A stretch of 64,000 bases of DNA. Source: Deltaproteobacteria bacterium (GTDB taxonomy: Bacteria > Desulfobacterota > Syntrophorhabdia > Syntrophorhabdales > JANXAF01). The notes beneath the pieces were generated by a model. The model worked only from the letters and a program-made list of their open reading frames with translations, did not search any database and had not been told where the DNA came from. The stretch lies in the NCBI GenBank assembly GCA_026417175.1, contig JAOADT010000011.1:1-64000 (forward strand), read 5' to 3'. Shown here piece by piece: positions 29,286-58,511 of this stretch. Made by a program: the position numbers and the translations under genes. Positions within the stretch are counted from its first letter, which is position 1. Each line of letters begins with the position of its first letter.

Positions 29286-30224
29286 ATGAGGATAAGTGTT
29301 GACATAGGAGGAACAAAAATTAGTTTTGGACTTTTAGATGAGAATACTCAATTGCTTTTTTTCGACAAAACCGAGACCGAAAAAGAAAAAGGTTACGAGT
29401 TTGTAAGAGATAAAGTAGTGAATTCTATTTTAAAAATCCTTTCGGCCAATAGCGTAACCATAAAGGACTTAACCCGTATAGGAATCGCATGCGCAGGCCA
29501 GATAGATATAAAGACCGGAACCGTGAAATTTTCTCCGAACTTAAAATGGCGAGATGCTCCTCTGGGAAAGGATATAGAATCTATTTTTTCGGTAGAGACT
29601 TTCGTGGAGAACGATGTTAACGCAGCTACATACGGCGAGTGGAAGTTTGCTTTTGGGGCAGAGAGCGAAAATGTTATAGGTGTGTTTTTGGGAACAGGGG
29701 TTGGAGGGGGTATAATTTTAAACAAGAGAATATATCGGGGATTTAATTTTGTCGGAGGAGAAATTGGGCACATGATCTTGAACCCAGAAGGATATCTATG
29801 CAATTGTGGTTCAAGAGGCTGCTTCGAGGCGGTTTGTGGCGGTGATTATATTATCCGCAGAGTAAGACACCTTATTGCAGAGGGATATAGGGGGAAATTA
29901 TGGGAACTTGCGAAGGCAAGCGAAGAAATTCACATGTCACATATAGAGAAAGCCTACTATTTAGGAGATGAGGGGGTAAAAAGGCTATGGGAGGAAGTAA
30001 TAGAATATCTCGGATGCGGTCTAACCAGTTTAGTAAATGTCTTTAACCCTGATTTATTAATAGTTGGCGGAGGTGTCATAAAAGGGACAGAGAGGCTTTT
30101 CGCTGAGGCTAAAAAAATAGTGGAACAAAGAGCGATGCCTGAAAGTAGAAATGGTGTTCGCATTGAGGTAGCAAGATTAGGTGATTGGGCCGCTCTCTTG
30201 GGAATTGCAAGTTTAGATGGGTAA
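29286..30224 (+). CDS. ROK-family sugar kinase (glucokinase-like)
   Basis: DIGGTKISFGL, GTGVGGGIIL, CNCGSRGCFEA. Confidence 0.93.
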   Translation: MRISVDIGGTKISFGLLDENTQLLFFDKTETEKEKGYEFVRDKVVNSILKILSANSVTIKDLTRIGIACAGQIDIKTGTVKFSPNLKWRDAPLGKDIESIFSVETFVENDVNAATYGEWKFAFGAESENVIGVFLGTGVGGGIILNKRIYRGFNFVGGEIGHMILNPEGYLCNCGSRGCFEAVCGGDYIIRRVRHLIAEGYRGKLWELAKASEEIHMSHIEKAYYLGDEGVKRLWEEVIEYLGCGLTSLVNVFNPDLLIVGGGVIKGTERLFAEAKKIVEQRAMPESRNGVRIEVARLGDWAALLGIASLDG

Positions 30225-30867
30225 AAACATAAGAAGCAGGGAGTATTACTTCACACCCCGTCTAGACATGATAGACATGATTCCAAAAACGGTAGAAAAA
30301 GTGCTTGATGTGGGGTGCGGGGGAGGATGTACGGGGTTGGCTCTTAAACAAACGAAAAATATCCAGGTGGTGGGCATTGAAATAAGGCATGACATTGCTG
30401 AATTTGCAAAAAAAAGTTATGACCTTGTATTGGTAGGGGATGTAGAAAGAATTGACCTTCCGTTTCCACCCAAATATTTCGACTGTATTATATATGGAGA
30501 CATACTTGAGCACTTGATAGATCCTTGGTCTTTACTTAAAAGACACAACGCTTATTTAAAAACTGGTGGCATCATTCTAGTGAGTATTCCAAATGTTAGA
30601 TACTATAAGGTTTTAAAAAAACTTATTTTTGTTGGTAGATGGGACTACGTGATGGAAGGAATCTTAGACATAGGTCACCTTCGTTTTTTTACCCTTTCGA
30701 ATGCGAAAGAGATGATAGAGGAAGCCGGGTACAGGATTTTAGAAGTGAGAAAAAAGTTTTCTAAAGCCCAGTGGCTTAAACTGCTTAACTTCTGTTTTAT
30801 GGGAACATTAAGCGAGTTTTTGGCAAAACAGTATATTATTTTAGCGGAAAAAGTGCTGGAGGTTTGA
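30217..30867 (+). CDS. Class I SAM-dependent methyltransferase
   Basis: VLDVGCGGGCTGLALK; DILEHLIDPW. Confidence 0.85.
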   Translation: MGKNIRSREYYFTPRLDMIDMIPKTVEKVLDVGCGGGCTGLALKQTKNIQVVGIEIRHDIAEFAKKSYDLVLVGDVERIDLPFPPKYFDCIIYGDILEHLIDPWSLLKRHNAYLKTGGIILVSIPNVRYYKVLKKLIFVGRWDYVMEGILDIGHLRFFTLSNAKEMIEEAGYRILEVRKKFSKAQWLKLLNFCFMGTLSEFLAKQYIILAEKVLEV

Positions 30868-30871
30868 CTCC

Positions 30872-31834
30872 TTGCCAAGGGTAACAGTTATTATTCCTAA
30901 TTATAACGGTAAAAGACTTCTATCTATATGTCTCGACTCTTTAAGAACCCAAGAATTCCAGGATTTTTCCGTACTAGTAGTTGATAACGGTTCGACTGAT
31001 AACTCTGTCTGCTTCCTTAGAGAATTCTATCCTGAGGTAAAAGTGATTGAATTGGAAAAAAATTACGGCTTTTCGTACGCGGTAAACAGAGGGATAGAAG
31101 TCTCTACCTCAGAATATGTTGCGCTTCTCAACAATGACATGGAAGTAACTCCCGGCTGGCTGAAAGAAATGATAATAGCCCTTGATGAACATCCTGAGGC
31201 GTCAGCATGTAATCCAAAAGTTTTAAGATACAATGAAAGAAATAGAATAAATGTGCTTGGTATACGTTATAACAGCAATAGCGAAGTAGAAATCATAGGA
31301 GCAGGAAAGGAAGATAATGGCCAGTACCAGGGAATAAAACAAATCTTTGGAGTAAATGCTGGAGCTTCTCTGTATCGGAGAGAAATCTTTAAGGACATTG
31401 GTCTCTTCGATGAAATTTTTTTCGCCTCGTTCGAAGATGTGGACTTGAGTTTTAGGGCCCAACTTGCAGGATACAAGGCCATCTTTGTTCCGACTGCGGT
31501 ATCGTATCACATGATAGGCGCAACTATAAAGAGGAGACGGTATATTCAGACTTATTTGAATAATAGAAATTCACTTCTATGTTTTCTTAAAAATATGCCG
31601 TATGAACTTATGCTTAGAAATCTATGGTCAGTCCTCAGTTACAGACTATCTATGTTTTTGAAAAGAACATTTCTTAACTTTTATAAGGTCAGAACCTATT
31701 ATTTTTTAGCAGGTGTAACCGCCGCTATTACAAGGATTCCGTATGTAATTAAGGCAAGAAAAGAAGTGCAAAAAAAAAGAAGGGTTTCAATTGAATACAT
31801 CGCTTCAATTATGGACAGGGATTTCATAGAATGA
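30872..31834 (+). CDS. Glycosyltransferase family 2
   Basis: VTVIIPNYNGKRLLSICLDSLRTQ...NNDMEV; TTG start. Confidence 0.92.
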   Translation: MPRVTVIIPNYNGKRLLSICLDSLRTQEFQDFSVLVVDNGSTDNSVCFLREFYPEVKVIELEKNYGFSYAVNRGIEVSTSEYVALLNNDMEVTPGWLKEMIIALDEHPEASACNPKVLRYNERNRINVLGIRYNSNSEVEIIGAGKEDNGQYQGIKQIFGVNAGASLYRREIFKDIGLFDEIFFASFEDVDLSFRAQLAGYKAIFVPTAVSYHMIGATIKRRRYIQTYLNNRNSLLCFLKNMPYELMLRNLWSVLSYRLSMFLKRTFLNFYKVRTYYFLAGVTAAITRIPYVIKARKEVQKKRRVSIEYIASIMDRDFIE

Positions 31835-33225
31835 TACAAAAAACTGTTTGGTTTATTGAGAATAAAGATTTAAGGAATATTTTGGCGAGTCATTGCGGTG
31901 AACCTAAGAGGGGATACAAAATTATAGAATTAAAAGATGGAAGAAAAATCTTCCTCAAGTCTTTTCGAGAAAAGGGGCTTTTAGGATTTATAAGAAACGT
32001 ATTTTTCCCAAGAGGAAAAAAGGAATTTCAGGTATTCAAAAAACTAGCGGACCTTTCCATACCCACCCCTTTAGGTTTTGGATATGGAGTAAGCAGGACA
32101 GGATCATTCTCGGTTTGGGAGTATTTAAGCGGAGAAAGTTATTTAGAAAAGTTTAATACTGTAGGTGATCGCATGCCCCTAATAAAAATGTTAGCCCATT
32201 TTCTCAAGGATTTAAAACTTAAAGGGGTAAGACACGATGATCTTCATCTAGAAAATATAATCATCTCTAATGACCGGCCGGTACTTGTAGATTTGCACAA
32301 AGTCAAAGTAAAGAAGGAAATAAACAGAAAAGAAGAGATATCAAACATTTCCCATGCTTTACATATGGTCTATAATGAGATGAACGAAAAAGAGAAAGAG
32401 ACCTTCTTTAAATTTTACGGTGCAACAGACCTTAGGGAGGCTGTGGAAAGTAAAATTGAGGCTTTAAGAGAACATTGGATAAAAAGAAAAGTTAAAAGAG
32501 CATTTCGTAAAACATCTATCGTGTCCGTGAAAGACTGTTTTAGATTTATCAAAGGATTCGAAGAGATAACTGAAGGAAGATATTTACTTACCTTAAAGAA
32601 GGACAAGAAAGTTGACGTAATAAGATATGAGAACTGTGTAAAGAAGATTTACAAAAGTAAAATGAGATTAAAAAAAGCATGGATAAATAGTGTCGTTCTA
32701 GAGTATATGAAGCTAAAAATAACGCCTCAAATTTTTGCAGCGAGAATCCCAAATTTTTTATCAAAAGGCTTTATTCTTATGGAGGATCTTACTGAAAAAG
32801 GGGAGGAACTGGATAGGTACCTTGATGGAAGGTACGAAAGTCTGAAATACTCGGAAAGAAAATTCTTTTTAAAGAGAATTTCCACTTTCTTTTTAGAAAT
32901 GTTAAAACATGGTGTGTTTCATAGAGATTTGAAAGGATGCAATGTTTTTGTCACAGCTGATAAAACATTTTATCTTCTCGATGTTGAGGATATAGAATTC
33001 AAAAAAGTTGGGATAGAAGACGTTGTTCGCATGCTTACAAAACTGAACAATACTATCCCTAAAAAAATCTATGTTAAAGACCGCTTAAAATTTGTTGCGT
33101 CTCTTAGGACATTTTCTAAAAATGAAAAAAGAGAGATCTGGAAAAGAGTAGCTGAAAAAGCAAAGAGGGAAGAAATTGTATACGAAGGTACGCAAGGATT
33201 AATTAGGGAAAAATGGGAAAGTTAA
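31831..33225 (+). CDS. Lipopolysaccharide kinase (InaA/WaaP)-like protein with two kinase domains
   Basis: HDDLHLENII...VDLHKVK in the N-half and HRDLKGCNVFV...LDVEDI in the C-half. Confidence 0.75.
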   Translation: MIQKTVWFIENKDLRNILASHCGEPKRGYKIIELKDGRKIFLKSFREKGLLGFIRNVFFPRGKKEFQVFKKLADLSIPTPLGFGYGVSRTGSFSVWEYLSGESYLEKFNTVGDRMPLIKMLAHFLKDLKLKGVRHDDLHLENIIISNDRPVLVDLHKVKVKKEINRKEEISNISHALHMVYNEMNEKEKETFFKFYGATDLREAVESKIEALREHWIKRKVKRAFRKTSIVSVKDCFRFIKGFEEITEGRYLLTLKKDKKVDVIRYENCVKKIYKSKMRLKKAWINSVVLEYMKLKITPQIFAARIPNFLSKGFILMEDLTEKGEELDRYLDGRYESLKYSERKFFLKRISTFFLEMLKHGVFHRDLKGCNVFVTADKTFYLLDVEDIEFKKVGIEDVVRMLTKLNNTIPKKIYVKDRLKFVASLRTFSKNEKREIWKRVAEKAKREEIVYEGTQGLIREKWES

Positions 33226-34214
33226 AAATCGCATTTTTTATTCAGGGTCAAAATGTGGCAGCGAGTAGACTCCGAGTTCTTCAATATCTTCCACATTTAA
33301 GAGAACTTGACATAGAACCTCTTGTAACAGAGTATCCAAAAAGTATCGTTAGCTGGGTAAGGATGCTAAAGTTGCTCCGGCACCATGACGGAGTATTTTT
33401 TCAGAGAAAGAGACCCCCCCTATTTTTTTTGGCCTTAATCAAGGCAATGCGAAAGAAAGTAATATTTGACTTTGATGATGCAATAATGTTCAAAAACTCA
33501 CTTTCAAAAAATCCATACTCTTTAAGAAGAAAAATGAGTTTCAAAAGGATAATGCGCTTTTCAGATTTGGTTATAGCTGGAAATAGCTTTCTCAGGGAGG
33601 AAGCTTTACGGTACAACAAAAATGTTCAAGTTTTACCTACGCCTATTAACGGCACGAAGTACTATATGAAGCCTCAGAATAGTGGAACTGAGGTCATACT
33701 AGGGTGGATTGGTGGCCATGTAAGTATACACTATCTTGAAAGCTACAAGGAGGTTTGGGAAGAGATAGGGAGACGGTTCAAAAATGTAAGTCTCACAATT
33801 ATATGTGACACTTTTATCCAGACGAATTTCATAAAAATAAATTTTGTTCCCTGGAGTGTAGAGACAGAGGTCGAAGAGCTTTCTAAGATAGACATAGGAA
33901 TTATGCCACTTTTTGAGGACATGTGGTCGAGAGGTAAATGTGGTTTTAAAATAATTCAGTATCTCGGTATGGGCATCCCCTGTGTATGCACACCCGTAGG
34001 AATAAACAGAGATATCGTTCAAGATGGTGTGGAGGGATTCTGGGCAACTACCAAAGAGGAATGGGTTGACAAAATATCAATTCTCGTTCAAGATCCGCAG
34101 TTAAGGAGACAAATGGGAGAAAGAGGAAGACAAAAGGTACTTAGAGATTATACAGTTGAAGTTTGCGCTCCAAAGCTTGCCAGATACATCCAATCCTTAT
34201 TTTTTGGGACTTAA
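33213..34214 (+). CDS. Glycosyltransferase family 1/4-like
   Basis: GT-B layout; DIGIMPLFEDMWSRGKCGFKIIQYLGMGIPCVCTPVG. Confidence 0.85.
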   Translation: MGKLKIAFFIQGQNVAASRLRVLQYLPHLRELDIEPLVTEYPKSIVSWVRMLKLLRHHDGVFFQRKRPPLFFLALIKAMRKKVIFDFDDAIMFKNSLSKNPYSLRRKMSFKRIMRFSDLVIAGNSFLREEALRYNKNVQVLPTPINGTKYYMKPQNSGTEVILGWIGGHVSIHYLESYKEVWEEIGRRFKNVSLTIICDTFIQTNFIKINFVPWSVETEVEELSKIDIGIMPLFEDMWSRGKCGFKIIQYLGMGIPCVCTPVGINRDIVQDGVEGFWATTKEEWVDKISILVQDPQLRRQMGERGRQKVLRDYTVEVCAPKLARYIQSLFFGT

Positions 34215-34678
34215 TATCCTATCTTTCGTCTCCAATCTGGTTCAAATTCCTCATCAAAGAATTTTTCGAGTTTCTTTAGTATCTTCCTCCATCCGGATTC
34301 ATATTCAGTAGTTAAGACATCTTTTAGAAACGGCACTATCTCTCCTAGTTTGTTCTTTGGTAGGTAAGCCCTTGCCTTCATATCGTAAGATTTTTTCAGC
34401 GAATCTGCATTTAAAGAGTGAGCGGTAAGCATTACAACTTTTAGATTTTTCTTGACTGCCATATCTAGAAGATCGAAACCTCTTACCCCCATTATGTCAA
34501 GTATAACTATGTCATAATCATTTTTCTCAAGCTTTTCTTTTGCCTCTTCGAAAGTAGTCGCTTCATCAAACTGGCAAGTCTCGCACGCATCAAGTATCTC
34601 TTCTTTTAATACTTGTAAGACATCGGGTTCATCGTCTACAGCAAGGATTTTTTTTCCGTCAAGTATGGGCTCCTTCAT
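34211..34678 (-). CDS. Stand-alone response regulator receiver protein
   Basis: ILAVDDEPDVLQVLKEE, DIVILDIMG, no output domain beyond a short basic/aromatic tail. Confidence 0.88.
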   Translation of the reverse strand: MKEPILDGKKILAVDDEPDVLQVLKEEILDACETCQFDEATTFEEAKEKLEKNDYDIVILDIMGVRGFDLLDMAVKKNLKVVMLTAHSLNADSLKKSYDMKARAYLPKNKLGEIVPFLKDVLTTEYESGWRKILKKLEKFFDEEFEPDWRRKIGY

Positions 34679-57145: not shown

Positions 57146-57302
57146 ACTTCTTAACTCCTTTCAAGAAAATTAAAGCTGCGAAGCTTTGTGCTATCTTATG
57201 ATTATTTGGGTTGTATGTCAAGACAAATCTTTCTGTATTTAATTAGTCAGAGATTTAAGGTATAATCTATGGCCTTATAATACAGCGAAGTAGGAGGTGC
57301 TT

Positions 57303-58511
57303 TTGAAGAGCATTGATGAGATCAATGAGAAAATAAAGAGTGGAAAAGTAGTGGTGGTTACTGCCGAAGAAATGGTTGAACTAGTGAAAGAAAAAGGAGT
57401 AAAAATGGCCTCTGAAATAGTAGATGTGGTCACAACTGGAACGTTCGGTCCCATGTGCAGTACAGGCATGTTCATTAACTTGGGACATTCAAGTCCAAGG
57501 ATAAAAATTGGAGGAGGCAAATGTTTTCTAAATGAGGTTCCCGCTTATACAGGTCTTGCCGCAGTGGATATTTACATAGGAGCTACTGCACTGCCTGAAG
57601 AGGATCCCAGAAACTCTGTGTATCCCGGCTCTTTTAAATATGGTGGCGGACATGTAATAGAAGATTTTGTAGCGGGTAAAAACATAAAACTCTTGGCTTA
57701 CGCCTATGGGACTGATTGCTATCCAAGAAGAAAGATAGAAACATATATAAATCGAGAGAATGTGAATGAAGCTTATTTATATAATCCTAGGAATTGCTAT
57801 CAGAATTATAATGTTGCAGTAAATCTTTCCAGCAGAATACTTTATACTTATATGGGCATTCTAAAGCCTAATCTACAGAACGCCAATTATTGCAGTGCTG
57901 GTCAACTTTCACCTTTGCTTAAAGATCCAAACTTCAGGACAATTGGAATAGGAACGAGGATATTTTTGGGAGGAGGGATAGGTTTTGTGGCGTGGCAAGG
58001 CACCCAGCATAACCCGAATGTGCCTAGAACCGAAAGTGGTATACCCAGGATGCCTGCTGGAACTCTAGCAGTTATAGGTGACGCAAAAAAAATGAATCCG
58101 AGATACCTAAGAGGGGCAAGTTTTGTTGGTTATGGGGCGACAATCTTTGTGGGGGTGGGGGTACCTATTCCAGTTCTCGATGAAGAAGTTGCTTACTACG
58201 CGTCAAGAGGCGATGATGAGCTTTTAGCGCAAGTTGTGGATTATGGTAATGATTATCCAGAAAATGTAAAACGGTCATTATGTGAGGTGACGTACGCTCA
58301 ATTGAAATCGGGGACTATAAAGGTGAACGGAAAAGAAGTGCCATGCTATCCAATATCGAGTTATTCTATGGCTGTAGAAATAGCTGAGACCCTAAAGGAG
58401 TGGATTAAAAGCGGATTATTTTATCTCACAAACCCAGTTGAATCGCTCCCTAAAGCAGGTTCCAATCTTAAGATCTGTGCTTTGGAGGATGGAAGAATTG
58501 ATCCTATGTGA
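57303..58511 (+). CDS. Homocysteine biosynthesis (DUF39/HcyBio) family protein
   Basis: GTFGPMCSTGMFINLGHSSPRIKIGGGKCFLNEVPAYTGLAAVDIYIGAT, GGGIGFVAWQGTQHNP; TTG 57303 preferred over track GTG because of AGGAGG at 57292. Confidence 0.85.
   Translation: MKSIDEINEKIKSGKVVVVTAEEMVELVKEKGVKMASEIVDVVTTGTFGPMCSTGMFINLGHSSPRIKIGGGKCFLNEVPAYTGLAAVDIYIGATALPEEDPRNSVYPGSFKYGGGHVIEDFVAGKNIKLLAYAYGTDCYPRRKIETYINRENVNEAYLYNPRNCYQNYNVAVNLSSRILYTYMGILKPNLQNANYCSAGQLSPLLKDPNFRTIGIGTRIFLGGGIGFVAWQGTQHNPNVPRTESGIPRMPAGTLAVIGDAKKMNPRYLRGASFVGYGATIFVGVGVPIPVLDEEVAYYASRGDDELLAQVVDYGNDYPENVKRSLCEVTYAQLKSGTIKVNGKEVPCYPISSYSMAVEIAETLKEWIKSGLFYLTNPVESLPKAGSNLKICALEDGRIDPM

What the first reader, a model, noticed from the sequence alone, without database searches (positions are those of the whole stretch)
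31831..33225. Single polypeptide with two complete-looking WaaP/InaA-type kinase domains in a glycosyltransferase cluster
Both halves carry kinase-like landmarks: FLKSF...HDDLHLENII...VDLHKVK (N-half) and VKKIYK...HRDLKGCNVFV...LDVEDI (C-half). It sits between a GT2 and a GT1/4 gene with 4-13 nt overlaps, suggesting co-translation in LPS core assembly. A fused pair could phosphorylate two positions, or one domain could be regulatory.
Basis: partly seen in the sequence, partly recalled or inferred. Interest (0 to 1): 0.6.

Follow-up and report, generated by a model that had tools for sequence, protein, structure and literature searches.

The report
Conserved tandem WaaP-type kinase protein
One bacterial protein carries two different sugar-kinase domains of the type that phosphorylate the outer-membrane glycolipid (LPS); the pairing is an old, widespread but apparently uncharacterised arrangement, and its second domain keeps nearly all catalytic residues yet always lacks one that kinases normally need.

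Summary
ORF 31831-33225 (+), 464 aa, has two WaaP/Kdo-kinase (PF06293) domains, residues ~24-228 and ~250-462. Each passes the Pfam cut-off alone. Each domain's profile has P. aeruginosa WaaP (6DFL) as its best solved relative. AlphaFold gives mean pLDDT 94.6 for the whole and 95.7 for the C-half; the C-half's best PDB fold match is WaaP.

The fusion is not odd to this genome. It occurs in 44 of 46 sampled genomes of the order (Syntrophorhabdales) and in other Desulfobacterota and Planctomycetota. The tree fits one old fusion.

"Two complete-looking domains" needs a correction. The first domain is canonical (Lys, aC-Glu, HxD, Asn, DLH). The second has Lys, HxDxKxxN and Asp invariant in 71/71 proteins, but its aC-Glu is always replaced by Ala/Ser/Gly/Asn.

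Best explanation: a bifunctional envelope-glycan kinase working with adjacent GT2 and GT4 glycosyltransferases, both domains active, the second with a modified active site. A purely regulatory second domain is less likely: in two related genomes the fused second domain has decayed while an intact separate copy sits nearby. The substrate is unknown; "LPS core" is plausible, not shown. I found no experimental description.

The parts
31831..33225 (+). tandem WaaP-type kinase, 464 aa (whole gene)
31900..32514 (+). first kinase domain (residues 24-228), canonical WaaP-like
   Evidence: PF06293 26.2 bits; profile vs PDB 6DFL E 1.6e-18; groups with E. coli WaaP in the tree
31957..31959 (+). K43, ATP-binding Lys of the first domain (WaaP K51)
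   Evidence: invariant in 68/68; aligned to 6DFL; WaaP residue roles from PMC6147952
32023..32025 (+). E65, aC glutamate of the first domain (WaaP E78)
   Evidence: 68/69
32233..32256 (+). H135-D137-H139-N142 catalytic loop of the first domain
   Evidence: D137 70/71, N142 70/71
32290..32298 (+). D154-L-H156 metal-binding motif of the first domain (WaaP D188-L-H190)
   Evidence: D154 71/71
32578..33216 (+). second kinase domain (residues 250-462), without aC Glu
   Evidence: PF06293 29.1 bits; 6DFL E 8.8e-13; AF2 pLDDT 95.7 and Foldseek top hit WaaP
32644..32646 (+). K272, ATP-binding Lys of the second domain
   Evidence: 71/71
32677..32679 (+). A283, the position of the aC glutamate in the second domain (never Glu)
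   Evidence: A54 S12 G4 N1; aligns with E65 of the first domain and with WaaP E78
32920..32943 (+). H364-D366-K368-N371 catalytic loop of the second domain
   Evidence: each 71/71
32980..32988 (+). D384-V-E386 metal-binding motif of the second domain (DxE/DxD in place of DFG/DLH)
   Evidence: D384 71/71; 386 Glu or Asp 71/71
30872..31834 (+). GT2 glycosyltransferase, overlaps the kinase gene by 4 nt
   Evidence: PF00535 E 9.1e-32
33213..34214 (+). GT1/GT4-type glycosyltransferase, overlaps by 13 nt
   Evidence: PF00534 E 2.7e-10; homologue adjacent in many relatives
30217..30867 (+). SAM methyltransferase upstream in the same run of genes
   Evidence: PF13489 E 5.1e-17
29286..30224 (+). ROK-family sugar kinase/regulator at the start of the run
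   Evidence: PF00480 E 1.3e-64

Best explanation
The gene encodes a bifunctional, cytoplasmic or membrane-peripheral small-molecule (sugar) kinase of the WaaP/KdoK superfamily. Shown: two protein-kinase-like domains joined by a short linker; a canonical first domain; a second domain that keeps the ATP Lys, the catalytic Asp, the metal-binding Asn and the metal-binding Asp but has lost the aC Glu; gene overlap with GT2 and GT4 glycosyltransferase genes; conservation of both domains together across two phyla. Inferred: each domain transfers a phosphate from ATP to a sugar of the envelope glycan that the neighbouring transferases build (LPS core, or a lipid-linked glycan attached to it), so that one polypeptide phosphorylates two positions or two successive acceptors. 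Also inferred: the second domain catalyses with a rearranged Lys partner, possibly the acidic residue two positions after the metal-binding Asp (Glu or Asp in 71/71).
For: Pfam and profile hits to WaaP for both halves. Fold of the whole and of the C-half. Invariance of catalytic residues in 71 distinct two-domain proteins. One old fusion, with first domains grouping with E. coli WaaP and second domains a separate clade. Both halves under similar constraint among orthologues. GT neighbours: 33 of 67 loci have a GT4 or GT2 gene directly adjacent on the same strand, often overlapping by 4 nt, although only 67 of 513 more distant genes in the same loci match those GT queries; the same GT2-kinase-GT4 order is seen in Planctomycetota. 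In genomes G200 and G289 the fused second domain has lost Lys, Asp and Asn while its first domain is intact and a separate intact second-domain gene lies 1.3-2.1 kb away, which fits a catalytic role moved to another polypeptide. The organism makes LPS: bamA, lpxD, lpxA, lpxB, msbA and waaA lie in this window, and five GT9 heptosyltransferase-type matches lie in the genome.
Against: No activity, substrate or expression data. The aC Glu, one of the ten key residues of the kinase-like superfamily, is absent from every second domain, which leaves room for a nucleotide-binding but weak or inactive domain. G200 and G289 belong to one family, so their decay may be a single event. Half of the relatives do not have a recognised GT directly beside the gene. 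A separate WaaP-like kinase exists in the same genome.
Confidence: 0.5

Rival explanations
1. Only the first domain is a kinase; the second binds nucleotide or glycan and acts as a regulatory or docking domain (JAK-like kinase/pseudokinase pair).
For: aC Glu missing in 71/71 second domains. In G200 and G289 the fused second domain is clearly degenerate yet kept, so a non-catalytic second domain can persist.
Against: Lys, HxD Asp, Asn and metal-binding Asp are invariant in 71/71, more strictly than in the first domain; where the fused copy decayed, an intact separate copy is present; stand-alone second-domain genes exist (G144, G200, G289). Loss of this Glu is known in other families of the superfamily (CAK-chloro, HSK2: PMC1821047).
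Confidence: 0.22
2. The kinase acts not on the LPS inner core but on an O-antigen, exopolysaccharide or lipid-linked glycan, for example capping a chain end with phosphate as WbdD does.
For: Neighbours are GT2, GT4 and a methyltransferase rather than heptosyltransferase genes; the first-domain profile also matches the WbdD kinase (1.3e-9); a separate WaaP-like gene lies on contig C10, which also carries two heptosyltransferase-type genes; some relatives lie among DegT, epimerase and GT genes.
Against: WaaP is a far better match than WbdD for the first domain (1.6e-18 against 1.3e-9), and no WbdD is among the hits shown for the second; the protein has no methyltransferase or coiled-coil domain of its own.
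Confidence: 0.25
3. It is a protein kinase (signalling) that happens to lie in a glycan cluster.
For: Generic protein-kinase hits for the second domain (PF00069 sub-threshold).
Against: Both domains match WaaP best; PF00069 is below its cut-off; no long activation loop is evident in the predicted secondary structure.
Confidence: 0.04

Closest known systems
WaaP/RfaP, LPS core heptose(I) kinase (PDB 6DFL; PMC6147952)
   Same: Fold, family PF06293; ATP Lys, HxD and metal-binding Asp in both domains; aC Glu and DLH motif in the first domain
   Different: WaaP is a single domain of ~265 aa; the tandem protein falls far below the WaaP equivalog cut-off (40.5 against 170 bits); its second domain lacks the aC Glu and has D-x-E/D instead of DLH; both domains keep the catalytic-loop Asn, where P. 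aeruginosa WaaP uses H168
KdkA, Kdo kinase
   Same: Same Pfam family PF06293
   Different: Score 33.8 against a cut-off of 142; single domain
WbdD kinase/methyltransferase (PDB 4AZW; PMC3482155)
   Same: Kinase-like domain acting on a glycan; profile match to the first domain
   Different: WbdD joins a methyltransferase, one kinase and a coiled coil; here two kinases and no methyltransferase in the polypeptide
Bud32/PRPK and RIO kinases
   Same: Same broad cluster of kinase-like families (Rio, Bud32, KdoK: PMC1821047); top fold neighbours
   Different: Single-domain, other cellular roles, other neighbours; arch_bud32 score 43.1 against a cut-off of 125
Clustered single-domain kinases WaaP, WapP, WapQ and the unassigned PA5006 of Pseudomonas (PMC8005017, PMC6147952)
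   Same: Several kinases of this kind beside glycosyltransferases in one cluster
   Different: There mostly separate genes; whether PA5006 is itself a tandem protein could not be tested here

Membership tests
PF06293 (Kdo/WaaP superfamily) | Each half above the curated gathering score | tested here: met
   26.2 and 29.1 bits against 21.3
PF06293 (Kdo/WaaP superfamily) | Protein-kinase-like fold in both halves | tested here: met
   Whole-protein model pLDDT 94.6; C-half model pLDDT 95.7, top PDB match 6DFL TM 0.60
WaaP heptose(I) kinase proper | Equivalog score NF011703 above cut-off | tested here: not met
   40.5 against 170 bits
WaaP heptose(I) kinase proper | K51, E78, HRD and DLH residues, first domain | tested here: met
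   K43, E65, H135xD137, D154-L-H156 aligned
WaaP heptose(I) kinase proper | K51, E78, HRD and DLH residues, second domain | tested here: not met
   K272, H364xD366 and D384 present; E78 position is Ala; DVE instead of DLH
WaaP heptose(I) kinase proper | Phosphorylates heptose I of the LPS core | not testable with these tools
   Needs biochemistry
KdkA (Kdo kinase) | Equivalog score NF002475 above cut-off | tested here: not met
   33.8 against 142 bits
WbdD chain terminator | Methyltransferase domain fused to the kinase, then coiled coil | tested here: not met
   Only kinase domains in the Pfam scan
Pseudokinase (second domain) | Loss of ATP Lys, HRD Asp or DFG Asp | tested here: not met
   All retained in 71/71; only the G200 and G289 fused copies qualify
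Pseudokinase (second domain) | No phosphotransfer activity | not testable with these tools
   Needs an assay

The most novel reading that the evidence does not exclude
The second domain founds a distinct subfamily of active sugar kinases that works without the aC glutamate (small residue plus a neighbouring Trp, acidic residue two after the metal-binding Asp), kept fused to a WaaP-type kinase across two phyla so that one enzyme places two phosphates on an envelope glycan.
Probability: 0.4. Interest if true: 0.6.

Novelty: new variant of a known kind. Interest (0 to 1): 0.4.

Why it matters
It names a widespread two-domain kinase family in anaerobic Desulfobacterota and in Planctomycetota whose envelope glycan phosphorylation is unstudied. 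It also offers a natural test of whether a kinase-like enzyme can stay active with its ATP Lys but without the aC Glu that normally pairs with it. Pairing with glycosyltransferases, sometimes fused to a kinase in the same loci, suggests that phosphorylation and glycan extension are coupled.

Tried and rejected
A single-sequence scan of genome contigs found nothing, and the broad alignment was too diverse to scan; an order-level alignment worked. tblastn against plasmids found nothing. Considered and rejected: an assembly or frameshift fusion of two genes (full-length open frames in most of the order); a chance kinase motif in the second half. G233, first taken for a split pair of genes, holds a run of masked bases, and G328 has a broken frame, so neither was used as evidence. 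Paper searches for a characterised tandem WaaP protein gave none. Whether PA5006 of Pseudomonas is a tandem protein was not tested, since no Pseudomonas sequence was at hand.

Full report
Observation. The ORF at 31831-33225 (+) encodes 464 aa. It overlaps a GT2 gene by 4 nt (ATGA at 31831-31834) and a GT1/GT4 gene by 13 nt (33213-33225). Pfam PF06293 (Kdo/WaaP) hits the two halves separately above its curated score, 26.2 and 29.1 bits against 21.3. NCBIfam models for WaaP, KdkA and Bud32 match far below their cut-offs, so it is a family member but not one of the named equivalogs.

Both halves are kinase folds. AlphaFold2 with 50 relatives gives mean pLDDT 94.6 for the whole. The C-half alone gives 95.7, and its first PDB match is WaaP 6DFL, E 7.6e-8, TM 0.60. 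Profiles of 39 first domains and 47 second domains both find 6DFL first in the PDB, at 1.6e-18 and 8.8e-13. First and second domain profiles align to each other at 99.7% probability.

Distribution. The protein is present in 44 of 46 sampled genomes of its order, 41 of them matched over at least 440 residues (counted by me from the table). Named contigs from the scan identify the order as Syntrophorhabdales of the Desulfobacterota/Thermodesulfobacteriota. More distant tandem proteins of about 480-610 aa occur in other families of the phylum and in Planctomycetota. In a phylum sample of 297 genomes, 64 have a strong second-domain match over 110 bits (my count). All 61 loci recovered with second-domain motifs also carry a first domain in the same frame.

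Evolution. In a tree of 93 domains the second domains form one clade (SH-aLRT 94). The first domains fall together with E. coli WaaP (88), and the single-domain paralogue of this genome lies in a different group. This fits one old fusion, or a very old duplication, and not repeated fusions. The tree is a quick one with long branches, so the exact root is unsure.

Catalytic residues. In 71 distinct tandem proteins the first domain has Lys43 in 68 of 68, aC Glu65 in 68 of 69, Asp137 and Asn142 in 70 of 71 and Asp154 in 71 of 71. The second has Lys272, His364, Asp366, Lys368, Asn371 and Asp384 in 71 of 71, and an acidic residue at 386 in 71 of 71. The position of the aC Glu (A283) is Ala 54, Ser 12, Gly 4, Asn 1. 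The alignment to 6DFL places A283 on WaaP E78, which in the WaaP structure engages the ATP Lys (PMC6147952). Loss of this Glu is known in other kinase-like families such as HSK2 and CAK-chloro (PMC1821047), so it does not by itself mean an inactive domain.

A natural experiment. In G200 and G289 (one family) the fused second domain has lost Lys, catalytic Asp and Asn while the first domain is intact. A separate intact second-domain gene lies 1.3-2.1 kb away. The simplest reading is that the catalytic job of the second domain is needed and has moved to the separate copy. A stand-alone second domain also exists in G144.

Context. 33 of 67 loci have a GT4 or GT2 gene directly beside the kinase on the same strand; by comparison 67 of 513 more distant genes in these loci match the same GT queries. 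The order GT2-kinase-GT4 recurs in Planctomycetota. The window itself carries bamA, lpxD, lpxA, lpxB, msbA and waaA, so the organism makes Kdo-lipid A. A separate single-domain WaaP-like gene lies on contig C10 about 4-7 kb from two heptosyltransferase-type genes, and is the better candidate for the classical core heptose kinase.

Mechanism. I favour a bifunctional glycan kinase acting on the product of the adjacent glycosyltransferases (0.5). A regulatory second domain (0.22) and a non-core glycan substrate (0.25) remain open; the latter concerns the substrate and is not exclusive of two active domains.

Verdict. The system is a new variant of a known kind: an old, widespread tandem WaaP-type kinase with an aC-Glu-less second domain, for which I found no experimental description among the open-access papers searched.

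Noticed in passing
L078:9493-11193, also L079, L085, L088, L089, L090, L093: In other 'Deltaproteobacteria' loci a second gene 1-5 kb from the tandem kinase encodes a GT2 glycosyltransferase fused to a C-terminal WaaP-like kinase domain (566-642 aa).
   Followed up: partly
L123:6963-9416 (genome G135): An 817-aa frame joins a WaaP-like kinase domain to a downstream GT2 domain, the opposite order from the L078 type.
   Followed up: no
L116:5200-6810 and L118:3573-5237: Tandem kinases whose second domain has become a pseudokinase, with an intact stand-alone second-domain gene nearby.
   Followed up: yes
L094:6179-7639: The only tandem protein of 71 whose first domain departs at the catalytic Asp (Glu) and Asn (Asp), a possible decay of the first domain instead of the second.
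   Followed up: no
L103:5096-7465 and L105:5075-7471: Planctomycete-type tandem kinases with an extra N-terminal ~300 residues of unknown nature (789-798 aa).
   Followed up: no
window 34211-34678 (-): A small response-regulator protein 94% identical in other genera of the family, much more conserved than its neighbours.
   Followed up: no
window 57297-58511 (+): A homologue of 'methanogenesis marker 16' (TIGR03287, 111.7 bits, below its cut-off of 364) in a bacterium, near the lipid A genes.
   Followed up: no
G000:C10 14240-15046 (L039:8235-9041, -): Single-domain WaaP-like paralogue (268 aa) overlapping a PP-loop protein gene, on the contig with two heptosyltransferase-type genes.
   Followed up: partly
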